A stretch of 64,000 nt of DNA, from assembly GCA_035645145.1 (NCBI GenBank), contig DASQNC010000071.1, forward strand, positions 1 to 64,000. Direction: 5' to 3'. A program made the position numbers and the translations under genes. Source of the stretch: Azospirillaceae bacterium (GTDB taxonomy: Bacteria > Pseudomonadota > Alphaproteobacteria > Azospirillales > Azospirillaceae). Below are positions 3,675 through 35,864 of this stretch, piece by piece. Position 1 is the stretch's first letter, and every line of letters begins with the position of its first letter. Below the pieces are notes generated by a model that was not told the DNA's origin, did not search any database, and was given only the letters and a program-made list of their open reading frames with translations.

Positions 3675-4376
3675 TCAGGCCGTCCCCTCCGCCTCCTCCA
3701 GCCAGACCGGGTTCTTCAGCGACTTCAGCAGTGCCGTGTGGGCTTCCAGCTCCTCGGCACTCGGCGCATGGGGGCGTGGCGGACGGACCTCGCGCACGCG
3801 GCGCGCGGGCCCGGCCGATCCCTTGGTGCCGGACGCGGTGAGGCCAAGCCCCTGCTGCCGGCCGCCCAGAAGCTCGATGTAGACCTCGGCCAGAAGCTGG
3901 GAGTCCAGCAGCGCGCCGTGCAGGATGCGGTTCGCGTTGTCGATGCCGAAGCGTTTGCACAGCGCGTCCAGGCTGGCCTGGGCTCCCGGGAAGCGCTCGC
4001 GCGCAAGGCGAAGCGTGTCCACCACCTTGCGGCCCTTGTCGATCGGCGGCAGGCCGAGGCGCCCCAGCTCCATATTCAGGAAGCCGATGTCGAACTGGGC
4101 GTTGTGGATGATCAGGTCGGCGTCGCCGATGTACTCCAGGAATTCGCCCGCAATCTGGGCGAACACCGGCTTGTCCGCCAGGAACTGGTCGGTCAGCCCG
4201 TGGACGGCGACGGCGTCCGCGGGGACGAAGCGTTCGGGGTTGATGTACCAGCGGCGGTGGCCCTGCGGGCCCGTGGGCAGGTGGTTGACCAGCTCGACGC
4301 AGCCGATTTCCACGATGCGGTCGCCCTTGGCGGGGTCAACGCCCGTGGTTTCGGTGTCCAAAACGATTTCCCGCAT
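3675..4376 (-). CDS. dnaQ: DNA polymerase III epsilon subunit (3'-5' proofreading exonuclease)
   Basis: A 233-residue DEDD-type exonuclease. The Exo I motif LDTETTG is at residues 6-12, with catalytic Asp7 and Glu9. Exo II is IIHNAQFDIGFLN around residue 90, and the Exo III region LDALCKRFGIDNANR...GALLDSQLLAEVY contains the late Asp. The subunit proofreads inside the replicative polymerase core. The C-terminal tail (about residue 185 on) is proline- and arginine-rich with a short motif that would bind the alpha subunit or clamp. It is the last gene of a leftward block leading away from the candidate origin. Its first 41 bases overlap the end of coaE. Confidence 0.93.
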   Translation of the reverse strand: MREIVLDTETTGVDPAKGDRIVEIGCVELVNHLPTGPQGHRRWYINPERFVPADAVAVHGLTDQFLADKPVFAQIAGEFLEYIGDADLIIHNAQFDIGFLNMELGRLGLPPIDKGRKVVDTLRLARERFPGAQASLDALCKRFGIDNANRILHGALLDSQLLAEVYIELLGGRQQGLGLTASGTKGSAGPARRVREVRPPRPHAPSAEELEAHTALLKSLKNPVWLEEAEGTA

Positions 4377-5019
4377 GCCGCCCCAGCCGTGATCCCGGAA
4401 AATGCCGGCGCGGCGGCCAGTGCCGCCCGTCCAGCCCCTTCGCCAGTCTGACGACCCGGACCAGCGCCTTCAAGGTGAAGCGTCGTCCCAGTCCGGTCGG
4501 CACCACGAAATCCGCCCGCCGGCGCTTTTCCACATCGGGCATCTGCCGGGCCAGGATGGCGGCCAGCTTGGCCTCGGTCATGCCGGACCGGGCCAGGACC
4601 CGCGCCCGCTGCACGAACCGGGGCGCGGTCACCACCACCGTCCGGTCGGTGCGGCGGTCGCCGCCGGTCTCGAACAGAAGCGGCACGTCCAGCACCACCA
4701 CCTTCATGCGCCGGCGCGCGGCGTCCGCCAGGAACCGGCGCAGCGACGCCTGCACCCGCGGATGCACGATCGACTCCAGCCAGCGCAGCTTGTCCGGGTT
4801 GTCGAACACCTGCGCACCCAGCGCCTGCCGGTCCACGGCCCCGTCGCGCACCACGCCGGGGAATGCCGCGGCGATCGGCGCCACCGCCCCGCCGCCCTTG
4901 GCCAGCAGGCGGTGCACCACCGCATCGGCATCGTGCACGGGAATGCCCAGCCGGCGCAGCATGCGCGCCGCCGTGCTTTTCCCCATGCCGATCGATCCGG
5001 TCAGGCCCAGGATGACCAT
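4336..5019 (-). CDS. coaE: Dephospho-CoA kinase
   Basis: It catalyses the last step of coenzyme A synthesis, phosphorylating the 3'-hydroxyl of dephospho-CoA. The P-loop GLTGSIGMGKST is at residues 5-16. It is followed by the CoA-binding pattern VHDADAVVHRL, the DxPLLFE motif (LDVPLLFETGGDR) and the lid arginines in RSGMTEAKLAAILARQM. ATG 5019 shares one base with the aroE stop (TGATG), which indicates translational coupling. At 227 residues it is about 25 longer than typical CoaE. The extra tail after VRLAKGL is arginine-, histidine- and glycine-rich and runs 41 bases into dnaQ in another frame. Confidence 0.92.
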   Translation of the reverse strand: MVILGLTGSIGMGKSTAARMLRRLGIPVHDADAVVHRLLAKGGGAVAPIAAAFPGVVRDGAVDRQALGAQVFDNPDKLRWLESIVHPRVQASLRRFLADAARRRMKVVVLDVPLLFETGGDRRTDRTVVVTAPRFVQRARVLARSGMTEAKLAAILARQMPDVEKRRRADFVVPTGLGRRFTLKALVRVVRLAKGLDGRHWPPRRHFPGSRLGRHAGNRFGHRNHGR

Positions 5020-5867
5020 CACAGGCTCGCCAGCACGAAATCCCGCAACGCGGGCGTGACCTCGGGCGCCACCCCGAACCAGGCCTCGAACCCGGGCCGC
5101 GCCTGATGCAGCAACATGCCGAGCCCGTCCACGACCGCGTTCCCGCGCGCCCGTGCGGCCGCCAGCAGGGCCGTTTCCAACGGCGTGTACACGATGTCGG
5201 TCACCACGGCGCCCGGCGGAAGCCCGTCCAGGCGCAGGTCGAGGGGCGGTTGCCCGTCCATGCCGAGCTGCGTGGTGTTGACCAGCAGCGCCGCCCCGCC
5301 CAACGCATCCTCGCGCGCATCCCAGCCCAGCACCCGGACCGGTCCGCCCAGGTCGAGCGCCAGCCGTTCGGCGCGCTCGAGCGACCGGTTGACCAGCCGC
5401 ACCTCCGGCACGTCCGCCTCCAGCAGGGCCGCCACGACCGCCCGTGCCCCGCCGCCCGCGCCCAGCACCACGGCCGGACCGGCGCTCCCGTGCCAGTCCG
5501 GGGCGCCCACGCGCAGGTTCGCGAGGAAGCCGAAGGCGTCGGTGTTGCTCCCCCGCAGCCGGCCGTCGGCCTGGACCACCACCGTGTTCACCGCCCCGAT
5601 CCGGCGGGCGGCGGGATCCACCTCGTCCAGCACGGCCAGCGCGGCCTCCTTGTGCGGCAGGGTCAGATTGCACCCCCGCATCCCCAGGGCCGGCAGGGCG
5701 CGCAGCGCCTCGGCCAGCCGGTCCGGCGGGACGGGCATCGGGATGTAGGCGGCGTCCAAACCGTGCCGCCGGATCCACCAGTTGTGCAGCCGGGGCGAGC
5801 GGGAGTGGGCGACCGGCCAGCCCATGACCCCGGCCACCCGCGCCTTGCCCGAGATCGCGTCGCTCAT
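5019..5867 (-). CDS. aroE: Shikimate dehydrogenase (NADP+)
   Basis: It reduces 3-dehydroshikimate to shikimate in the aromatic amino-acid pathway. The protein has 282 residues. The substrate-binding N-terminus has GWPVAHSRSPRLHNWW, the catalytic lysine is in NLTLPHKEAAL, and N and D follow in GAVNTVV and SNTDAFGF. The glycine-rich NADP loop VLGAGGGARAVVAAL and the phosphate-binding VNRSLERAERL are both present. The C-terminal helix LLHQARPGFEAWFG is typical. Start ATG 5867 overlaps the maf stop by ATGA. It is part of the tightly coupled ppsR-maf-aroE-coaE-dnaQ run. Confidence 0.95.
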   Translation of the reverse strand: MSDAISGKARVAGVMGWPVAHSRSPRLHNWWIRRHGLDAAYIPMPVPPDRLAEALRALPALGMRGCNLTLPHKEAALAVLDEVDPAARRIGAVNTVVVQADGRLRGSNTDAFGFLANLRVGAPDWHGSAGPAVVLGAGGGARAVVAALLEADVPEVRLVNRSLERAERLALDLGGPVRVLGWDAREDALGGAALLVNTTQLGMDGQPPLDLRLDGLPPGAVVTDIVYTPLETALLAAARARGNAVVDGLGMLLHQARPGFEAWFGVAPEVTPALRDFVLASL

Positions 5868-6478
5868 GACGGCAGGACCCCGCGGGTGCGCAGGAAGTCC
5901 AGCAACGGCAGCAGCGGCATCCCCAGGATGGTCGCGTGGGCGCCGTCGATCCGGGCGAAAAGCTGCGCGCCCAATCCTTCGGCCTGATACGCGCCGACGG
6001 ATGTGCACACGGCGTCGCCCGCGGCCTCCAGGTAGCGGTCCAGGAAGGCGTCGGACAGCGGGCGCATGGTCAGCCTGGCCGTGTCGGTCCGGTGCCAGAT
6101 GCGGGCACCGTCCAGGCAGACGACCGCGCAGGACACCAACCGGTGCGTCCGGCCGGCCAGCGTCTTGAGCTGCGCCTTCGCGGCATCGCGGCCCGTGGGC
6201 TTGTCGAACCAGACGCCTTCGCATTCCAGCATCTGGTCGGCGCCGACGACCAGCAGGCCGGGGCGCCGCGCGCTGATCCGCTGCGCCTTGAGTTCGGCCA
6301 GCGCCTCCGCCACGTCCTCGGCCCGCGCGCCGGCCGCCTTCAGCGACAGCTTCACCTCGTCCTCGTCCACCGACGCCGGATCGACGACGACCTCCAGCCC
6401 GGCCGCCCGCAGCATGGCCGCCCGCGTGGCCGACCCCGACGCGAGCACGATGGGCGCATCGGCAAGCATTGCGGCCAT
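5864..6478 (-). CDS. maf: Maf-family nucleotide pyrophosphatase
   Basis: A Maf/HAM1-fold hydrolase that removes pyrophosphate from dTTP, UTP or modified nucleotides. Diagnostic motifs are IVLASGSATRAAML at the N-terminus, LLVVGADQMLECEG with the catalytic Asp, and CTSVGAYQAEGLGAQLFARIDG near the C-terminus. Typical Maf proteins have SxSPRR at the start; here the sequence is SGSATRAA. This departs from the classical YhdE-type motif and could shift substrate preference. ATG 6478 leaves 2 bases to the ppsR stop; a later ATG at 6469 is also possible. Length is 204 residues. Confidence 0.9.
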   Translation of the reverse strand: MAAMLADAPIVLASGSATRAAMLRAAGLEVVVDPASVDEDEVKLSLKAAGARAEDVAEALAELKAQRISARRPGLLVVGADQMLECEGVWFDKPTGRDAAKAQLKTLAGRTHRLVSCAVVCLDGARIWHRTDTARLTMRPLSDAFLDRYLEAAGDAVCTSVGAYQAEGLGAQLFARIDGAHATILGMPLLPLLDFLRTRGVLPS

Positions 6479-6480
6479 GG

Positions 6481-7320
6481 CTAGACGGACTCCCCGGTGT
6501 GCAGGCCCGGGCGGCGGCGGGCCAGCAGCATCAGGATCTCGGCCGCCGTCTCCTCGATCGAGCGGCGCGACACGTCGATCACCGGCCACCCCTGCTGGGC
6601 GTAGAAGCGCCGCGCGGCCTGGAGTTCGGCGCGCACGGCCTCCGGGTCCACATAGCTGGTGTCCTCGCTCTGGTTCAGAAGGCGCAAGCGGTTGCGCCGG
6701 ATCTGGACCAGCCGGTCGGGGTCCTTGGTCAGGCCGACCACCAGCGGTCGCGTCAGCACGGTCAGTTCGGGGGGCAGCGGCACGCCGGGGACGAAGGGGA
6801 CGTTCGCCGCCTTCACCCCGCGGTTCGCCAGATAGATGCAGGTCGGCGTCTTGGACGTGCGCGACACGCCCACCAGGATGACATCGGCCTCGTGCAGGTT
6901 CTTCTGGGACTGGCCGTCGTCGTGGGCGATGGCGAAGTCCATCGCATCCATGCGCCCGAAATACTGGGCGTCCAGCATGTGCTGGCGGCCGGGCTGGCTT
7001 TTGGACTCCATGCCCAGATAGGCGCCCAGTGCCGCGATCAGGCTGTCCAGCACGGGGATGCAGGGGACCGCCAGCTCGTTGCAGACGTCCTGCAGGCGTC
7101 GGCGGAGCTTGTCGTCCACCAGCGTGAACATGACCAGACCCGGATTGTCGCGGACCCCCTCGATGACGAGGTCCAACTGGCGCTGGGTCCGCACCAGGTT
7201 CCAGAAATGCTCGACCGGTTCGACCCCGTCGAACTGGGCCACGCAGGCGCGCGCCACGCTGTTGATGGTTTCGCCCGTCGAGTCCGACACAAGGTGGAGA
7301 TGGAAACGCTTCATGTTCAT
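6481..7320 (-). CDS. ppsR: Pyruvate phosphate dikinase / PEP synthase regulatory protein (bifunctional kinase-pyrophosphorylase)
   Basis: A DUF299 family member of 279 residues. It phosphorylates PPDK or PEP synthase with ADP and removes the phosphate with phosphate, switching gluconeogenic PEP formation. The start MKRFHLHLVSDSTGET and the P-loop-like GVSRTSKTPTCIYLA (about residues 155-170) are family signatures, as is PFVPGVPLPPEL. An AGGATGG Shine-Dalgarno lies about 5 bases before ATG 7320; ATG 7314 is an alternative. It is the first gene leftward from the candidate oriC. As I recall, Caulobacter also begins its chromosome with this gene followed by maf, aroE, coaE and dnaQ. Confidence 0.92.
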   Translation of the reverse strand: MNMKRFHLHLVSDSTGETINSVARACVAQFDGVEPVEHFWNLVRTQRQLDLVIEGVRDNPGLVMFTLVDDKLRRRLQDVCNELAVPCIPVLDSLIAALGAYLGMESKSQPGRQHMLDAQYFGRMDAMDFAIAHDDGQSQKNLHEADVILVGVSRTSKTPTCIYLANRGVKAANVPFVPGVPLPPELTVLTRPLVVGLTKDPDRLVQIRRNRLRLLNQSEDTSYVDPEAVRAELQAARRFYAQQGWPVIDVSRRSIEETAAEILMLLARRRPGLHTGESV

Positions 7321-7671
7321 GGATGCCATCCTATCCACGGCCCGGCTGGGGATGAAAGGTGGATAACCGGCCCGTTTCCGCGATCCGGCCATTCCGCCCA
7401 CCGACGGTGGACTCCCCATGCCACCCGTCGCACGCCTGTCGAAAACGTTCCGGCACCCTGGGGGAATCCGGGACAAACGGACTGTCCACACGAATTTTGC
7501 ACATGCTTCTACGCCAATAGGCGTGCGGCTTTCCGCTGAGTCCTCCACGGGGTTTTCCACAGCGCCTCGCGCCGGTGCTCCGGACTGTGTATGAAATTGC
7601 GGTCAGCGGGGATCACCGTTACCCACAGGCCCAACGACCACTCCCACCTAGATTCAAACTCTTTCTTTAGG
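7321..7671. other. Candidate chromosomal replication origin (oriC), ppsR-hemE intergenic region
   Basis: The 351-bp gap lies between divergent ppsR and hemE. DnaA-box-like nonamers against TTATCCACA are: 7358-7366 (reverse strand, one mismatch), 7553-7561 TTTTCCACA (one mismatch), 7619-7627 TTACCCACA (one mismatch), 7331-7339 and 7482-7490 (two mismatches each). Positions 7651-7670 are about 70% AT in a roughly 70% GC sequence, which suits a DNA unwinding element. Three GANTC (CcrM-type) sites are at 7410, 7538 and 7651. Genes on both sides point away from it. In Caulobacter and Sinorhizobium the origin adjoins hemE, which is established knowledge. Origin function here is inferred. The hemE and ppsR promoters must also lie here. 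Confidence 0.75.
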
Positions 7672-8757
7672 ATGGATGTCCCCGTGCCAGCCGTTCGCCA
7701 GACCTCCCAGCCGGACACCCGGTCCAAACCGTTCCTGCGCGCCTTGGCCGGCGAAACCGTCGGCCCGGTGCCGTTCTGGCTCATGCGCCAGGCCGGCCGG
7801 TATCTGCCCGAGTACCGCGAGGTGCGGGCGCGGGCGGGCGGGTTCCTGGACCTCTGCTACACGCCGGATCTGGCGGCCGAGGTGACGTTGCAGCCGTTGC
7901 GCCGGTACGGGATGGACGCGGCGATCATCTTCTCCGACATCCTGGTCGTGCCGCACGGCCTGGGCCAAAAGGTCTGGTTCGCGGAAGGCGAAGGGCCGCG
8001 GCTGGAACCGGTGCGCGATGCGGCCGGGCTCGGCCGGTTGAGCCGGGCGGACCTGCCCGGGCGTCTGGCGCCGGTGTACGAGGCGGTGCGCCGGGTCAAG
8101 GCGCAGCTTCCCGACGGGACGGCCCTGATCGGCTTTGCGGGAGCGCCCTGGACGGTGGCGTGCTACATGGTCGAAGGGGCGGGATCGAAGGAATACCGGG
8201 ACGTCAAAGGCTGGGCCTACGGCGATCCCGACGGTTTCCAGGCCCTGATCGATCTGCTGGTCGACGCGACGGTCGATCACCTCTCGCTGCAGGTCGAGGC
8301 GGGCGCCGAGGCGTTGCAGCTCTTCGACAGCTGGGCCGGCGTGCTGCCCGAGACGGCGTTCCGGCGATGGGTGGTCCGGCCGACCGCGAAAATCGCGGCC
8401 GCCCTGAGGGCCCGGCACCCGGATGTGCCGCTGATCGGCTTTCCGCGTGCGGCCGGGCACCACTACGAGACCTATGCCGACGAGGCGGGCGTGACGGCCC
8501 TGGGGTTGGACACGACGGTGCCGGTGGAATGGGCGGCGCAGCGGTTGCAGACCCGGCTTCCGGTGCAGGGCAACCTGGATCCCGTGATGTTGGCCGTCGG
8601 CGGGGCCGCAATGGAGGCCGAGGTCGTGCGCATCCTGGAAGCGCTGGGCCGTGGTCCCTTCGTCTTCAACCTGGGCCACGGCATTCTGCAGCACACGCCG
8701 CCGCAGAATGTCGCGCATCTGGCGCGCATTCTGCGGGAGTGGCGCCCGGCGGCTTGA
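7672..8757 (+). CDS. hemE: Uroporphyrinogen decarboxylase
   Basis: It decarboxylates the four acetates of uroporphyrinogen III to give coproporphyrinogen III in haem and (if present) bacteriochlorophyll synthesis. The family signature PFWLMRQAGRYLPEYR is at about residues 30-45, the catalytic aspartate is in IIFSDILVVPHGLG, and the second signature is IGFAGAPWTVACYMVEG. The C-terminus has GNLDP and FNLGHGILQHTPP. Length is 361 residues. ATG 7672 was taken; GTG 7684 has a better-spaced AGGATGG upstream and is a serious alternative. No hemH lies beside it, and hemJ is the next gene. Confidence 0.95.
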   Translation: MDVPVPAVRQTSQPDTRSKPFLRALAGETVGPVPFWLMRQAGRYLPEYREVRARAGGFLDLCYTPDLAAEVTLQPLRRYGMDAAIIFSDILVVPHGLGQKVWFAEGEGPRLEPVRDAAGLGRLSRADLPGRLAPVYEAVRRVKAQLPDGTALIGFAGAPWTVACYMVEGAGSKEYRDVKGWAYGDPDGFQALIDLLVDATVDHLSLQVEAGAEALQLFDSWAGVLPETAFRRWVVRPTAKIAAALRARHPDVPLIGFPRAAGHHYETYADEAGVTALGLDTTVPVEWAAQRLQTRLPVQGNLDPVMLAVGGAAMEAEVVRILEALGRGPFVFNLGHGILQHTPPQNVAHLARILREWRPAA

Positions 8758-8859: not shown

Positions 8860-9285
8860 ATGTACGAGTGGGTCAAGGCGCTGCACGTGATCAGCATCAT
8901 CGCCTGGATGGCGGGGATGCTCTACCTGCCGCGTCTGTTCGTCTACCACACCCAGGCCCCGGCCGGCTCCATCCAGTCCGAGACGTTCAAGATCATGGAA
9001 CGCCGGTTGATGAAGGCGATCATCAACCCGGCGATGGTCGCGACCTTCGTTTTCGGGATCTGGCTGATCGCGCTCAACCCCGGCTGGCTGTCCCAGGGCT
9101 GGCTGCACGGCAAGCTTCTGCTGGTGTTGGGCCTGGCCGCCATGCACGGCATGATGTCGCGCTGGCGCAAGGACTTCGAGGCCGACCGGAACGCGAAGTC
9201 CGAGCGCTTCTTCCGCATCGCCAACGAGGTGCCGACCCTGTTGATGATCGGCATCGTCATCCTGGTGGTGGTCAAGCCGTTTTGA
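8860..9285 (+). CDS. hemJ: Protoporphyrinogen IX oxidase, HemJ type
   Basis: A 141-residue membrane protein with four hydrophobic helices that oxidises protoporphyrinogen IX to protoporphyrin IX. The family markers are WVKALHVISIIAWMAGMLYLPRLFVYH at the N-terminus (conserved His within the first helix), MKAIINPAM, the WLHGKLLLV helix, and NEVPTLLMIGIVILVVVKPF at the C-terminus. It stands 102 bases after hemE in the same direction and before rho, the usual alphaproteobacterial order, so it supplies the next haem step but one. The spacer begins with a degenerate relative of the 3' element described elsewhere in the window. Confidence 0.93.
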   Translation: MYEWVKALHVISIIAWMAGMLYLPRLFVYHTQAPAGSIQSETFKIMERRLMKAIINPAMVATFVFGIWLIALNPGWLSQGWLHGKLLLVLGLAAMHGMMSRWRKDFEADRNAKSERFFRIANEVPTLLMIGIVILVVVKPF

Positions 9286-9341: not shown

Positions 9342-9490
9342 TTTAACCCATAGGCCTGCGCGCCTTTTGTGTCGCGCGTAAGCGGAATGGCGCCATCCCT
9401 CCTGTTCGGGCGCCAAGGCAGGCCAATCCCCCCTGACCATAGCCCCTGCCCCGGGTTGGCGGCATGGGCGATCCCGAGATCACAGACCCC

Positions 9491-10747
9491 ATGCACCTTC
9501 AGGAACTCAAGGTCAAATCGCCCGCCGAACTGCTCGCGTTCGCGGAGGAGCTGCAGATCGAGAACGCATCCAGCCTGCGCAAGCAGGACATGATGTTCGC
9601 GATCCTGAAGCAGCTTGCCGAAAACGACGTGCCGATCTACGGCGACGGCGTGCTGGAGGTGCTGCCGGACGGGTTCGGGTTCCTGCGCTCGCCCGAGGCG
9701 AACTATCTGCCGGGCCCGGACGACATCTACGTCAGCCCGACCCAGGTGCGCCGCTTCAACCTGCGCACCGGCGACACGGTGGAAGGGCAGATCCGGTCGC
9801 CCAAGGACGGCGAGCGGTACTTCGCCCTGCTCAAGGTCAACACGATCAACTACGACACGCCGGACAAGCTCCGGCACCGGATCAACTTCGACAACCTGAC
9901 GCCGCTCTATCCGGACGAGCGGCTGAAGATGGAGGTCGAGGATCCGACGAAGAAGAACTTCACGGGCCGGATCATCGATCTGGTGGCGCCGCTGGGCAAG
10001 GGTCAGCGCGCGCTGGTGGTGGCGCCGCCGCGCACCGGCAAGACCGTGATGCTGCAGAACATCGCGCACTCGATCAGCGCCAACCACCCCGAGGTCTACC
10101 TGATCGTGCTGCTCATCGACGAGCGGCCCGAGGAAGTGACCGACATGGCGCGCAGCGTGCGCGGCGAGGTCATCAGCTCGACCTTCGACGAGCCGGCGGC
10201 CCGCCACGTGCAGGTGGCCGAAATGGTCATCGAGAAGGCCAAGCGTCTGGTCGAGCACAAGCGCGACGTGGTGATCCTGCTGGATTCGATCACCCGCTTG
10301 GCACGCGCCTACAACACCGTGGTGCCGTCATCGGGCAAGGTGCTGACCGGCGGTGTGGACGCGAACGCGCTCCAGCGGCCCAAGCGCTTCTTCGGCGCGG
10401 CCCGCAACATCGAGGAAGGCGGCTCGCTGACCATCATCGCGACCGCGCTGATCGACACCGGCAGCCGCATGGACGAGGTGATCTTCGAGGAGTTCAAGGG
10501 CACCGGCAACTCCGAGCTGGTCCTCGACCGCAAGATCTCGGACAAGCGCACCTTCCCGGCCATCGACATCCAGAAGTCGGGCACCCGTAAGGAAGAGCTG
10601 CTGGTCGACCGTGCCAACCTGTCGAAGATGTGGGTCCTGCGCCGCATCCTGACGCCCATGGGCACCGTGGATGCGATCGAGTTCCTGCTGGACAAGCTGC
10701 GGCACTCGAAGACCAACCAGGACTTCTTCGAGAGCATGAACCAGTAG
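9491..10747 (+). CDS. rho: Transcription termination factor Rho
   Basis: A hexameric RNA-dependent ATPase that terminates transcription. The N-terminal Rho domain has [19 protein letters not shown] and [10 protein letters not shown]. The RNA-binding cold-shock-like domain includes [21 protein letters not shown]. Walker A APPRTGKT is at about residues 176-184, Walker B is [18 protein letters not shown], and the Q/R-loops include [15 protein letters not shown]. The C-terminus is [17 protein letters not shown] 9491 (MHLQELK) matches family starts; ATG 9464 would add nine residues. A strong intrinsic terminator hairpin follows the gene, inside the 10783-10889 element. Confidence 0.96.
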
Positions 10748-11507: not shown

Positions 11508-11996
11508 TCAGGCCTGCGCGCCCTGCTGCTGGGCGGCCGCCATCTGCTGCTGGTACAGCATCGAGAAGTCGATCATCGGCAGCAGCATGGGCGCGAAGCC
11601 GCCCTCGCGCGTGGCGTTGGCGACGATCTGCCGGGCGAAGGGGAACAGCAGGCGCGGCCCCTCGATCATCAGGACGGGGTGGACGTGCTCCTGCGGGATC
11701 CCGGCCAGGGTGATGATGCCGGCATAGTCCAGTTCGACGATGAAGGCGGTGGCGCCTTCGATCTTCGCCTCGCTGCGGACGGACAGCACCACTTCGTAGC
11801 TGTTCTCGGCCACACCCCGCGCCGAAACGTTGACCTGCAGCTCGCCATGGGGCTGTTCGGTCGCCGCCAGGCTCTTCAGCGGGTTCGGGTTCTCGAAGGA
11901 GAGATCCTTGATGTACTGGGCGTTGACCATGATGCCGGGCAACGCGGGACGCTCCTGGTCCTGGCCTTGGCCTTGGCCGTTCGGCGGATTGGTCAT
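11508..11996 (-). CDS. secB: Protein-export chaperone SecB
   Basis: A cytosolic tetrameric chaperone that keeps preproteins unfolded and hands them to SecA. The protein has 162 residues. Family markers are VNAQYIKDLSFENPNPLKSL, VELDYAGIITLAGIPQE and EGPRLLFPFARQIVANATREGGFAPMLLPMIDFSMLYQQQ. The N-terminus is glutamine- and glycine-rich (GQGQGQDQ) and the C-terminus is QQMAAAQQQGAQA. ATG 11996 has a GAGGAG about 10 bases upstream. SecB near dnaQ and the origin is common in alphaproteobacteria, by memory. Confidence 0.95.
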   Translation of the reverse strand: MTNPPNGQGQGQDQERPALPGIMVNAQYIKDLSFENPNPLKSLAATEQPHGELQVNVSARGVAENSYEVVLSVRSEAKIEGATAFIVELDYAGIITLAGIPQEHVHPVLMIEGPRLLFPFARQIVANATREGGFAPMLLPMIDFSMLYQQQMAAAQQQGAQA

Positions 11997-12102
11997 CGCT
12001 TGGGTACTCCTCAAGAAACCGCTGGAAAATCAGGGGAAGCGCAGCGCTTAGCACGCCCGCGGGCGGCCAAGCAACCGGCCCTGGGCGTGCCGTCCCGCAC
12101 CC

Positions 12103-12648
12103 TCAGTCCCCCGGGGGGTCCCACGGGGCCGCGGGATCGAAGGGAACGATGGCGCAGTTGTGCGCTTCCTGGCCGGTCAGTGTCCGGATCACGCCCCAAT
12201 GGCACACCAACGCCAATCCCGGCCGATCGTCGCGGGCGGCCAGGGCGGCCCGTAATTCGCCGAGCCGCAGGTGCAGGCGCGACCGCGGCTCGTCCAGGTC
12301 CGGCCACCAGATTTCCGGAAGGCGCGACAGGTCCAGCCCGGGGAACAGGGCCTCCAGCTCCGTCCGCGGCGTGCCGACGTCGCACGAGAAGGCGGCATGC
12401 TCGCCCGCCAGCGGTTCGACCTCGACCGGGACGTCCAGCAGGTCCGCGATGATGGTCGCGGTTTCCAGGGCCCGCCGGTAGGGGCTGGCCAAAATCCGTT
12501 GCACGCCCCGGCGGCGCAGCTCGACCGTGGCGGCGGCCGCCTGTTCGCGTCCGGTGTCGGTCAGGCGGGGATCGCGGATGCCGGGATCGCGGCGGGTCTT
12601 GGAGAAAAGGCGGTTCCACTCGGACTCGCCATGGCGCACGAGAAGCAT
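12103..12648 (-). CDS. Histidine phosphatase family protein (phosphoglycerate-mutase fold)
   Basis: The sequence begins MLLVRHGESEWN, the RHG motif whose His becomes phosphorylated. It also has TDTGREQAAAA, the second arginine in ILASPYRRALETA, and LALVCHWGVIRTLTG with the second catalytic His. Length is 181 residues. This shape is that of small phosphatases such as SixA- or PhoE-like enzymes. The substrate is unknown. The ATG shares one base with the fxsA stop (TGATG), so the two genes are translationally coupled. Confidence 0.85.
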   Translation of the reverse strand: MLLVRHGESEWNRLFSKTRRDPGIRDPRLTDTGREQAAAATVELRRRGVQRILASPYRRALETATIIADLLDVPVEVEPLAGEHAAFSCDVGTPRTELEALFPGLDLSRLPEIWWPDLDEPRSRLHLRLGELRAALAARDDRPGLALVCHWGVIRTLTGQEAHNCAIVPFDPAAPWDPPGD

Positions 12649-13157
12649 CAGGACCTGTACTTCGAATTGGGGGAGCCCCAGTGCGAGGAGGAGGGGGGCA
12701 ACGAGGAGGTGGGCGGCTGCGGCGGTTCGTCCCCGTCCAGTTCGCGCCATTCCGCCTCGATGACGCGCGGGCGGGCGGCCTGGTCCCGGGCGGCGGCCGG
12801 CCCGGCACCGCCGGCGATCCGCCGGTGCAGCCAACGATACACCAGCTCGCGGACGGGCGGGGCCAGCAGGAGCAGGGCGAACAGGTCGCCCACGAATCCC
12901 GGCACGATCAGCAACACCCCCGCGATCACGCGGCAGACCGCGTCGAACAGCGGGCGGACCGGCGCCTCCCCGCGGGCCGAAGCCGTCCGCAGTTCCGTCA
13001 CCACCTGGAAGGGCTGGGCGCGCAGCAGGACGGTACCGGCCAGGGCCGCCAACAGGACCAGTGCCAGGGTCGCCAACAGGCCGATGCGGTCGCCGACAAC
13101 GACGAAACCGGCGATTTCCAGAAGCGGTGCGGCGATCAATGCGACCAGAACGGCCAT
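12648..13157 (-). CDS. fxsA: FxsA family membrane protein
   Basis: The protein has 169 residues. Two N-terminal hydrophobic helices (VLVALIAAPLLEIAGFVVVGDRIGLLATLALVLLAALAG region) are followed by LLRAQPFQVV and a third and fourth hydrophobic stretch in VIAGVLLIVPGFVGDLFALLLL. This is the FxsA pattern (E. coli FxsA is linked to phage exclusion, but the role in alphaproteobacteria is unknown). The C-terminal 50 residues are charged and cytosolic. It diverges from the timA-mltA pair; the 196-bp gap (13158-13353) between them must hold both promoters and shows no other feature. Confidence 0.85.
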   Translation of the reverse strand: MAVLVALIAAPLLEIAGFVVVGDRIGLLATLALVLLAALAGTVLLRAQPFQVVTELRTASARGEAPVRPLFDAVCRVIAGVLLIVPGFVGDLFALLLLAPPVRELVYRWLHRRIAGGAGPAAARDQAARPRVIEAEWRELDGDEPPQPPTSSLPPSSSHWGSPNSKYRS

Positions 13158-13353
13158 GCCCGTCCTTGCCTCCCTGGGAGCAGCCGCCTATCTAGCGGGA
13201 AAGGGATGCGCCCGGCGTGCCCCGACAAGGCCACCGGCAGGCGTCCCGTGTTCAAGGTAGGGTGCAACCGGTTACGGGTCCAGTGCGTCGGACGGGCGGA
13301 ACCTCCGCTGCAACGATTGGACCGGCCGAGCAGGCCGGGGCAACGAACAGACG

Positions 13354-14031
13354 ATGGGTGGTGGCTTGGAATTCATCGACATCCTCATCTTCGCGATGAT
13401 TGCGGCCTTCCTGGTGTACCGGCTGCGCAGCGTGCTCGGCCGCCGCCACGGGGAGGAGCGCCAGCGCCCCAATCCCTTCTCGCCGCCCTCGCCGCAGCCG
13501 GTGGGCGACAGCAACGTGGTCACCCTGCCGCAGCGTGCCGGCTTGTCCGTGCCGCAGCCGGCGCCGGGCGAACCCGTGTCGCTCGCCCAGGGGCTGGCCC
13601 TGATCCGGCAGGCCGACCCCGCCTTCGACGAAAAGCATTTCCTGGACGGCGCCCGCGGCGCGTTCGAGATGATCGTGGGCGCGTTCGCCCAGGGCGACCC
13701 CGCCACCCTGCGGCCCCTGCTGGCGGACGAGGTCTACGGCAACTTCGTCCAGGCCATCGAGGCGCGCCGGGCCGCCGGCGAGACGCTGGAGACGCGGATC
13801 GTCAAGTTCGACGACGTCGACATTTCCGCGGCGCGCATGGACGGCCCGATCGCGCTGGTCACCCTGCGCTTCGCCACGCAGCAGACGTCGGTGTTGCGGG
13901 ACCACGCCGGCAACATCCTCGATGGCGACTCCGAGCGCCCGGCCGAGGTCATCGACATCTGGACCTTCGCGCGCGACACGCGCACGCAGGACCCGAATTG
14001 GCAGCTCATCGAAACGCGCATCCCGGGGTGA
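13354..14031 (+). CDS. timA: Tim44-like / TimA family membrane protein
   Basis: The protein has 225 residues. One N-terminal membrane anchor (FIDILIFAMIAAFLVYRLRSVLG) is followed by a proline-rich linker. The C-terminal Tim44-like domain (from about residue 85) contains FDEKHFLDGARGAFEMIVGAFAQGDPATLRPLLADEVYGNF and ends VIDIWTFARDTRTQDPNWQLIETR. Alphaproteobacterial TimA is a homologue of the mitochondrial import component Tim44. It is thought to sit at the inner membrane, but its function is not settled. It is followed 7 bases later by mltA, a common pairing. Confidence 0.9.
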   Translation: MGGGLEFIDILIFAMIAAFLVYRLRSVLGRRHGEERQRPNPFSPPSPQPVGDSNVVTLPQRAGLSVPQPAPGEPVSLAQGLALIRQADPAFDEKHFLDGARGAFEMIVGAFAQGDPATLRPLLADEVYGNFVQAIEARRAAGETLETRIVKFDDVDISAARMDGPIALVTLRFATQQTSVLRDHAGNILDGDSERPAEVIDIWTFARDTRTQDPNWQLIETRIPG

Positions 14032-14038
14032 GCCAGGG

Positions 14039-15235
<1,197 letters not shown>

Positions 15236-34155: not shown

Positions 34156-35864
34156 ACGCGCGCGGCGGTGGCTCCCCGTCCGATCCACACCCGAAACCCT
34201 CGTCCGACGGTGTGGACGGCACCGAGAACGGGAGCGACGGCACGGCCTCACCCGCTTCGGTCATCATCGAGAGGTTCGGCGGCATCCGTCCGATGGCCGG
34301 CAAGCTGGATGTGCCCGTCACCACCGTCCAGGGATGGAAGAAACGCGGCCACATTCCGGTTGCCCGGCATGCGGAGCTGAAGGCGGCGGCCGACCGCCTG
34401 GGCATCCCCCTGAGCGACACGGAACTCGCCGCTGCCGCCCCGGTCGAGGATGCGGGGGATCCGCAGATGGTCCACGTTCCCCACGCCCCCGGGGAGCCCG
34501 TTCCCGGCAGCGTCCCGACCACCCTATCCGCGCCGCCCGACCCAGAGCAGCCCCGCATGTCCGACACCTTCCCCACCCCGTCGCCCCGCCCGGACTCCGA
34601 ACCCGTCACGGGACCGGCCCCTGGATCGGCCACAGCGTCGGAGGCGGTGCGGCCCCCGCGGACCGGCCGCGGACTCGCGAAAGCCGCCCTTGCCGGGTCG
34701 GCCATCGCGATCGTCACCGCCCTTGCCGTGCCCTATTATTTCTGGTCGTCGAACGGCCCGTCCGGGTCTTCGGTCGATCCGGCGGTTCCCGACCGGCTGG
34801 CCGAGTTGGAGCGTCGGCTGGATCAGACGGCGGCCGGCCCGGCGGCGGACCCCGGCGAAATCCGGCGGCTGGGCGAGCGGCTGGCGGCCATCGAGCAGCG
34901 CCCCGCGCCGGCGTCACCGGATCTGGCGCCGATTCAGCAGCGGTTGGCGGCGCTCGAGCAACGGCCCGCGGAACAGGGCGGGGCACCCGACCTTTCGGCC
35001 ATCGAACAGCGCTTGGGCCAATTGGAGGCGCAAGACCGCCGGGACGACCAGGAGACGGCTTCGGCGTCCGATGCCGGGATCGACCCTGTGGCGCTTGACC
35101 GGCGGCTTGCCGAACTGACGCAGCAGGTGCAGGACACGGCCGGCCGCCTCCAGCGGATGGAGCAGCAGGTCCAGGGTTTGCAGCAGCAGGCGCAAGGGGT
35201 TCAGCAGCAGGCCGGTCAACTGGCCGCGCTCCAGCAATCCTTGCAGCGCCTGGAACAGGCGATGGCAGCGGCGGCGCAGCGCACCGATGCCCTGGCGCGC
35301 ACGGTCGAGCAGCGGGCCGAAGCGGGGGGGGCGGCGCAGGCCCTGGTGCTGGCCACGGCGCAGCTCCGGTCGGTTCTGGGCGACGGACGACCCTTCCAAC
35401 CGGAATTGCAGGCCGTCCAGCAATTGGCCGGCGGCCAGGGACCGCTGGCGCAGGTCGTGGAGCCGCTGGCCCCCCATGCCGCGACGGGCATTCCGACCCG
35501 GGCCGCCTTGACCGAACGGTTCCGCACGCTCGCCGGCGAGATCATCCGTGCCGATCAGGAGAACGGGAACGGCGGCGACTGGACGGACCGGGCGCTGGGC
35601 CGCCTGGGCACGCTGGTGACAATCCGCCGCCAGGGTGACGTCGAGGGCACCGGGACCGAGGCGGTGGTCGCGCGGGCGCAGGCCAAGCTCGGCCGGGGCG
35701 ATCTGGCGGGCGCGGTGGACGAGCTGGCCCGGCTGGAAAGTGCGGAAGGCCGCACCGCGGCCGCATGGCTGGCCGATGCGCGGGCCCGCCTTGCCGCCGA
35801 CCGCGCGGCCGAGGTCATGACACAGGCGGCCGTGGGCCGTCTGGCCGGGAGTGCCCAGCGATGA
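34152..35864 (+). CDS. Mitofilin-like inner-membrane protein with N-terminal HTH-like domain
   Basis: The protein has 570 residues. The N-terminus (about 37-95) has a small helix-turn-helix-like domain, VIIERFGGIRPMAGKLDVPV then VQGWKKRGHIPVARHAEL. I recall this as the carph-isopro-type domain in Rhodospirillales. A proline-rich linker is followed by one membrane helix (about residues 178-200, AIAIVTALAVPYYFW). A long coiled coil rich in Q, L, A and E comes next. The C-terminus resembles COG4223/Mic60-like proteins, with LGRLGTLVTIRRQGD. Alphaproteobacterial Mic60 homologues sit in the hem operon and shape intracytoplasmic membranes. Translation is coupled to hemD and hemY. Confidence 0.85.
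   Translation: MNARGGGSPSDPHPKPSSDGVDGTENGSDGTASPASVIIERFGGIRPMAGKLDVPVTTVQGWKKRGHIPVARHAELKAAADRLGIPLSDTELAAAAPVEDAGDPQMVHVPHAPGEPVPGSVPTTLSAPPDPEQPRMSDTFPTPSPRPDSEPVTGPAPGSATASEAVRPPRTGRGLAKAALAGSAIAIVTALAVPYYFWSSNGPSGSSVDPAVPDRLAELERRLDQTAAGPAADPGEIRRLGERLAAIEQRPAPASPDLAPIQQRLAALEQRPAEQGGAPDLSAIEQRLGQLEAQDRRDDQETASASDAGIDPVALDRRLAELTQQVQDTAGRLQRMEQQVQGLQQQAQGVQQQAGQLAALQQSLQRLEQAMAAAAQRTDALARTVEQRAEAGGAAQALVLATAQLRSVLGDGRPFQPELQAVQQLAGGQGPLAQVVEPLAPHAATGIPTRAALTERFRTLAGEIIRADQENGNGGDWTDRALGRLGTLVTIRRQGDVEGTGTEAVVARAQAKLGRGDLAGAVDELARLESAEGRTAAAWLADARARLAADRAAEVMTQAAVGRLAGSAQR

What the first reader, a model, noticed from the sequence alone, without database searches (positions are those of the whole stretch)
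7321..7671. Candidate oriC between ppsR and hemE
The gap has five DnaA-box-like nonamers (three with a single mismatch), a 70% AT stretch at 7651-7670, and three GANTC sites. Genes diverge on both sides. The hemE-side location and the ppsR-maf-aroE-coaE-dnaQ order match the known Caulobacter-type origin region.
Basis: partly seen in the sequence, partly recalled or inferred. Interest (0 to 1): 0.7.

Follow-up and report, generated by a model that had tools for sequence, protein, structure and literature searches.

The report
Chromosome replication origin beside hemE
The gap between the genes ppsR and hemE is very probably where this bacterium starts copying its chromosome, an ordinary example of a known kind of origin, though the chase turned up a possible second DNA switch for the same initiator protein elsewhere in the genome.

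Summary
The 351-bp ppsR-hemE gap has three DnaA boxes with one mismatch and six with two (9 against a window mean of 0.31 per 351 bp). GANTC sites number four, not three. All 30 family gaps read (this one included) hold four or more boxes at <=2 mismatches; at <=1 mismatch, 8.4/kb against 0.09/kb in flanks. A core profile finds one place in this genome, window 7585-7659; in 31 of 35 family genomes its match lies beside hemE. The contig's cumulative GC skew is lowest at 7,809. GC skew changes sign at the gap in 3 of 4 relatives sampled around it; a fifth was mixed. The dnaA locus has no near-consensus box; gidA/parB lie 61-65 kb away on rising skew.

Verdict: an alphaproteobacterial hemE/COG1806-type oriC, a new member of a known kind. 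Unlike Caulobacter, it has no CtrA site above chance, and it fails the published DnaA-trio rule.

By-product: the genome's only three perfect TTATCCACA lie upstream of uvrC, dcd and dnaB, not in oriC. The uvrC element matches the E. coli DARS1 core and recurs across Alphaproteobacteria.

The parts
7321..7671 (.). oriC: intergenic gap between divergent ppsR and hemE
7585..7659 (+). conserved oriC core (inverted box, R1-like box, C-rich stretch, start of AT-rich stretch); the only match of the family profile in this genome, E 1.5e-13
   Evidence: the window is in the training set of the profile
7619..7627 (+). R1-like DnaA box next to the AT-rich stretch, TTACCCACA (TTATCCACA in many relatives)
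7586..7594 (-). core DnaA box TCATACACA (2 mismatches), 33 bp before the R1-like box as in relatives
7553..7561 (+). core DnaA box TTTTCCACA, 33 bp before the inverted box (42-43 bp in several genera)
7358..7366 (-). ppsR-side DnaA box TTATCCACC
7331..7339 (+). weak DnaA box CTATCCACG
7347..7355 (-). weak DnaA box TCATCCCCA
7437..7445 (-). weak DnaA box TTTTCGACA
7482..7490 (+). weak DnaA box CTGTCCACA
7495..7503 (+). weak DnaA box TTTTGCACA
7650..7669 (.). AT-rich stretch (75%), probable unwinding element, touching the hemE start
   Evidence: function inferred
7410..7414 (.). GANTC (CcrM-type methylation site)
7464..7468 (.). GANTC
7538..7542 (.). GANTC
7651..7655 (.). GANTC inside the AT-rich stretch
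6481..7320 (-). ppsR (COG1806), pyruvate phosphate dikinase/PEP synthase regulator
7672..8757 (+). hemE; start codon uncertain, homology to relatives mostly begins at residue 3-19
8860..9285 (+). hemJ
9464..10747 (+). rho
5864..6589 (-). maf-like (start uncertain)
   Evidence: below the models' cut-offs
5019..5999 (-). aroE (start uncertain)
4336..4989 (-). coaE (start uncertain)
3675..4376 (-). dnaQ

Best explanation
The gap is the chromosomal origin, oriC. DnaA binds a cluster of mostly weak boxes. A core of three boxes (+, -, +; 33-bp steps) ends in an R1-like box pointing at a short AT-rich stretch beside hemE, where the helix is opened and the helicase is loaded; forks leave in both directions, ppsR-maf-aroE-coaE-dnaQ on one side and hemE-hemJ-rho on the other. 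GANTC sites in and around the core may let CcrM-type methylation mark replicated origins. Shown: box cluster, conserved core, one core match in the genome, strand-composition change at the gap in relatives. Inferred: DnaA binding, unwinding, initiation, methylation role.
For: Nine boxes (<=2 mismatches) in 351 bp against a mean of 0.31. In the 30 ppsR-hemE gaps of the family that I read (29 relatives and this one): 119 boxes (<=1 mismatch) in 14.1 kb against 10 in 107.3 kb of flank, every gap with at least one; GANTC 10.1/kb against 1.4/kb. In 61 scored gaps of 80 named loci (19 not scored; partly the same genomes): 5.4/kb against 0.10/kb. Core aligned in 23 of the 30, with 12 invariant columns. 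The profile has one match in this genome; 56 of 59 family genomes match at E <= 0.1, among them all 24 (G059-G082) that gave no training sequence; in 31 of the 35 genomes G000-G034 the best match lies just upstream of hemE (searches compared by me). GC skew changes sign at the gap in G012, G019 and G043 (p 0.004, 0.0008, 0.0002); GGGNAGGG polarity differs between sides in G007, G012, G019 and G043 (Fisher p 3e-8 to 0.007), reversing in three of them. Own contig: skew minimum at 7,809; 11 of 12 successive 20-kb stretches to the right are positive. gidA, parB and two perfect parS sites lie 60-65 kb away on the same contig. GcrA and a RAMA-domain (CcrM-like) protein are encoded. dnaA locus: no box at <=1 mismatch in 20 kb. 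The genome's own DnaA keeps the usual C-terminal motif RDHTTVMHA (that this motif reads the box is recalled).
Against: No experiment. The genome is a draft of 74 contigs and only 7.3 kb lies left of the gap; the skew has a second dip, -115 at 34,763 against -169 at 7,809, so the own minimum is weakly constrained. GGGNAGGG shows no clear bias on the own contig (35 forward, 26 reverse right of the gap; none in the 7.3 kb left). G003, sampled on another plan, is mixed: the 20 kb on either side of the gap have the wrong sign, though GGGNAGGG in the wider arms fits, as after a local inversion. G007 GC skew is flat (p 0.52), and in G012 the hemE side is even for GGGNAGGG (30 to 33). Three of 59 family genomes lack the core and G008's weak match is not beside hemE. 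Published DnaA-trio rule not met. GANTC count alone is not unique on the contig. Eleven of 61 scored gaps have no box at <=1 mismatch.
Confidence: 0.94

Rival explanations
1. The box cluster is a DnaA-controlled divergent promoter or DnaA-titrating site for ppsR and hemE, and replication starts elsewhere.
For: Other box clusters of this genome do sit upstream of genes (uvrC, dcd, dnaB, radA).
Against: Those have 1-3 boxes at <=1 mismatch and at most 6 at <=2 within 350 bp against 3 and 9 here; strand composition changes at this gap in relatives; the R1-like box faces an AT-rich stretch.
Confidence: 0.04
2. The origin is at dnaA or at parAB/gidA, as in many other bacteria.
For: The families' usual association with origins (established knowledge); parS sites, gidA and parB lie on this contig.
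Against: No box at <=1 mismatch in 20 kb around dnaA; no more than 3 boxes (<=2 mismatches) within 400 bp elsewhere on C71, and skew keeps rising through 68-72 kb.
Confidence: 0.02
3. The cluster is a chance gathering of nonamers.
For: No box is perfect.
Against: P about 5e-7 per stretch and clusters in all 30 family gaps read.
Confidence: 0.002

Closest known systems
Caulobacter crescentus Cori and Rickettsia prowazekii origin (hemE/COG1806-flanked oriC)
   Same: Same two flanking genes, DnaA boxes, higher AT than the surroundings (PMC1914354, passages).
   Different: No CtrA site within 2 mismatches and no excess over shuffles in the family; no IHF site within 1 mismatch. secB, fxsA, Tim44 and mltA genes lie on the hemE-rho side; from recall they follow dnaQ in Caulobacter.
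E. coli oriC
   Same: R1-type box followed by GG and then the AT-rich stretch, in the same orientation (E. coli side recalled).
   Different: R1 is TTACCCACA here; no IHF site within 1 mismatch; GANTC is enriched in the family; GATC was not tested.
Basal unwinding system (DnaA-trio origins)
   Same: Box, GC-rich spacer, AT-rich stretch.
   Different: The published rule (three or more NAN trios within 16 bp) is met by 5 of 30 family gaps, not above shuffles (24%), and not by the window.

Membership tests
Alphaproteobacterial hemE/COG1806-flanked oriC | Gap between divergent ppsR (COG1806) and hemE | tested here: met
   definition from PMC1914354 passages
Alphaproteobacterial hemE/COG1806-flanked oriC | DnaA-box cluster above chance | tested here: met
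Alphaproteobacterial hemE/COG1806-flanked oriC | AT content above surroundings | tested here: met
   39% AT against 32% in flanks
Alphaproteobacterial hemE/COG1806-flanked oriC | Shift in strand composition at the site | tested here: met
   one of five relatives mixed, one with flat GC skew, own left arm only 7.3 kb
Alphaproteobacterial hemE/COG1806-flanked oriC | Initiation of replication in cells or autonomous replication | not testable with these tools
   needs experiment
CtrA-controlled Cori (Caulobacter subtype) | CtrA sites TTAA-N7-TTAA in the origin | tested here: not met
   none in the window gap at <=2 mismatches; 46 in 30 gaps against 46 in shuffles
CtrA-controlled Cori (Caulobacter subtype) | IHF site | tested here: inconclusive
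   none in the window gap at <=1 mismatch, 3 at 2; family 4 against 2.6 shuffled at <=1 (consensus recalled)
DnaA-trio (BUS) origin | Three or more NAN trios within 16 bp of a DnaA box | tested here: not met
   rule from PMC8287927 passages
DARS (for the uvrC-upstream element, not the window) | Three DnaA boxes, I and II head-to-head, III beside II | tested here: met
   12-bp and 14-bp steps equal those of E. coli DARS1; in the own genome the outer two boxes have 2 mismatches each; definition from PMC10380432 passages
DARS (for the uvrC-upstream element, not the window) | Promotes ADP release from DnaA | not testable with these tools
   needs biochemistry

The most novel reading that the evidence does not exclude
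Origin control in this class works as a pair: an oriC of weak, non-consensus DnaA boxes between ppsR and hemE, and a DARS-type DnaA-reactivating site upstream of uvrC that holds the strong box. The latter would be the alphaproteobacterial counterpart of E. coli DARS1, which lies upstream of uvrB.
Probability: 0.35. Interest if true: 0.6.

Novelty: new member of a known kind. Interest (0 to 1): 0.3.

Why it matters
Placing oriC lets the draft genome be oriented and gives a compact family-wide alignment of an Azospirillaceae-type origin, useful for building replicating plasmids and for timing studies. The uvrC-upstream element would, if it works like DARS, extend a DnaA-reactivation site to Alphaproteobacteria and tie it to excision-repair genes in two classes.

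Tried and rejected
CtrA and IHF site searches: no excess for CtrA, 4 against 2.6 for IHF. DnaA-trio rule: not met. Origin at dnaA: no near-consensus boxes. Origin at parAB/gidA: skew and boxes against. G003 at 20 places over the genome: GC skew too weak to read, signs beside the gap opposite to expectation. dcd-upstream boxes as a conserved element: of 10 genomes with the gene, only the two of the own genus have a box at <=1 mismatch. Genome-wide ranking of box clusters is incomplete: one search listed 100 of 158 places; C71 was read in full, the other places from the rest of C36 on were not seen. Rows dropped: the core alignment used 23 of 30 gaps; I left out four near-copies (L011, L013, L019, L020) and the three diverged g5 gaps (L028, L030, L033), whose genomes G024, G005 and G029 are the three without a core match. 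Of 80 named loci, 19 were not scored because ppsR was absent, distant or otherwise placed.

Literature, listings only: no paper on an Azospirillaceae oriC among 20 listed of 915; none tying DARS to uvrC or to Alphaproteobacteria by title or abstract start among 12 of 44, 10 of 21, 1 of 1 and 15 of 73 listed. Passages: PMC3193534 on Caulobacter DnaA has no 'DARS' and no 'uvrC'; PMC6090056 mentions DARS-like sequences in Vibrio cholerae; PMC10380432 says DARS-like sequences occur in many proteobacteria, citing a paper I did not read; PMC6015884 places DARS1 on the uvrB promoter.

The script prints '11 of 30' for uvrC adjacency; that tally subtracts a wrong offset. Its rows show uvrC downstream on the same strand in 25 of 30. 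The first script on ppsR used a wrong frame and missed loci on the minus strand; one search replaces it.

Full report
The window is the first 64 kb of contig C71 (251,850 bp) of a 74-contig, 3.89-Mb draft. Its family is probably Azospirillaceae: contigs of several family genomes have the same lengths as named contigs of Nitrospirillum, Skermanella, Oleisolibacter and Niveispirillum (inference from equal lengths). The genus has no name here; the closest named hemE found is 71% identical (Azospirillum sp. SYSU D00513, which may leave out very near records).

Observation. The gap 7321-7671 lies between divergent ppsR and hemE. Three boxes are one mismatch from TTATCCACA and six more are two away; the window mean is 0.31 boxes (<=2 mismatches) per 351 bp. 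GANTC sites are four, not three. The AT-rich stretch is real but short: 75% over 20 bp, 54% over the best 50 bp.

Comparison. I read 30 family gaps, the best 30 of 53 hemE-bearing genomes, this one included. Boxes at <=1 mismatch number 119 in 14.1 kb of gap (8.4 per kb; 1 to 7 per gap) and 10 in 107.3 kb of flank (0.09 per kb); GANTC 10.1 against 1.4 per kb, though some gaps have only one. The alignment shows a core: a forward box, an inverted box, and 33-34 bp after that a forward box, usually followed by GG and a C-rich run, then A/T-rich DNA. This last box faces the AT-rich stretch as R1 does in E. coli (recalled). The first step is 42-43 bp in several genera and 33 bp in the window, in its genus mate G001 and in G006, a difference of about one helical turn. 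In the own genus the R1-like box has drifted to TTACCCACA (window) and ATTCCCACA (G001), although the genome's DnaA keeps a usual-looking DNA-reading end.

Uniqueness. A sequence-only profile of the core, built from 23 of the 30 gaps, has one match in this genome, at 7585-7659; 56 of 59 family genomes match at E <= 0.1, including all 24 (G059-G082) that gave no training sequence (run with strict filters). Of the 35 genomes G000-G034, whose hemE positions are known, 31 have their best match just upstream of hemE, one (G008) has a weak match elsewhere and three have none. Since 23 of these 35 trained the profile, their matches are partly by construction.

Skew. The contig's cumulative GC skew is lowest at 7,809 (-169), dips again to -115 at 34,763 and ends at +2,203; 11 of 12 successive 20-kb stretches to the right are positive. 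Left of the gap there are only 7.3 kb. Around the same gap in four relatives (ten 20-kb samples per side; G007 and G043 were wrapped over the record end on the assumption of a circle; G043 is of another family), GC skew changes sign in three (G012, G019, G043) and is flat in G007. GGGNAGGG polarity differs between sides in all four and reverses in three; in G012 the hemE side is even. On the own contig it is not clearly biased (35 to 26). G003, sampled evenly over the genome instead, is mixed: the two stretches touching the gap have the opposite sign, while GGGNAGGG in the wider arms fits, which a local inversion would explain.

Rivals. dnaA lies on contig C73 without any box at <=1 mismatch in 20 kb. 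gidA, parB and two perfect parS sites lie at 68-72 kb of C71, on rising skew and without a box cluster.

Type. The neighbours are those of the Caulobacter and Rickettsia origins (PMC1914354, passages). CtrA sites do not exceed shuffled controls; IHF sites are inconclusive; the published DnaA-trio rule is not met. GcrA and a RAMA-domain protein of CcrM type are encoded, so GANTC-based marking is plausible but untested.

By-product. The genome has only three perfect TTATCCACA (13 for the reversed control). They lie upstream of uvrC (C2), dcd (C11) and dnaB (C15) (genes confirmed by family models); a weaker cluster lies upstream of radA. Upstream of uvrC, 24 of 30 genomes examined (of 34 with a match; own included; three of the loci are cut short) have a perfect box; of these 24, 23 have a box-like nonamer (<=3 mismatches) 12 bp before and 23 an inverted one 14 bp after. 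E. coli DARS1, upstream of uvrB (PMC6015884, passages), has the same two steps and fits the string TTATCCACAG-N5-GTGGA. That string occurs in 110 of 385 genomes of the class, with no reversed-control match in the rows I read; of 30 loci taken from these, 25 have uvrC downstream on the same strand. The uvrC and class samples overlap. That this element reactivates DnaA is inference; regulation of uvrC by DnaA is the simpler reading, and both can hold at once.

Verdict. oriC, confidence 0.94; a new member of a known kind, interest 0.3. The bolder reading, a DARS-type partner site upstream of uvrC, I hold at 0.35.

Noticed in passing
G000:C2:81157-81191 (in L073, L246, L297); relatives L247-L275, L289-L318: Three-box element upstream of uvrC with the geometry and core string of E. 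coli DARS1; the string is in 110 of 385 class genomes, and uvrC follows in 25 of 30 loci looked at.
   Followed up: partly
L071 (C11:78150-78220), L072 (C15:120684-120713 and 116274-116400), L073 (C2:81069-81180): All three perfect TTATCCACA of the genome lie upstream of DNA-metabolism genes (uvrC, dcd, dnaB), and a further cluster upstream of radA; none is in oriC.
   Followed up: partly
L183, L188, L190, L192, L194, L196, L199, L211: Eight ppsR-hemE gaps (three records named Reyranella, the others Rhodospirillales, Rhodospirillaceae or Alphaproteobacteria MAGs) lack any DnaA box at <=1 mismatch, but seven carry CTACTACTGCTAC(T/A)ACC and L211 a similar run, very regular DnaA-trio-like repeats.
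   Followed up: partly
window 11508-15235: secB, fxsA, Tim44 and mltA genes stand on the hemE-rho side, whereas from recall they follow dnaQ in Caulobacter; perhaps a rearrangement around the origin.
   Followed up: no
L051-L052 (G003:C1:2862001-2902000): Strand composition just beside the gap is opposite to that of the wider arms, as after a recent inversion that includes the origin.
   Followed up: no
G000:C71:68011, 70411 and 120731: Two perfect parS sites (TGTTTCACGTGAAACA) on either side of gidA, shortly before parB, and a third with one mismatch at 120,731.
   Followed up: no
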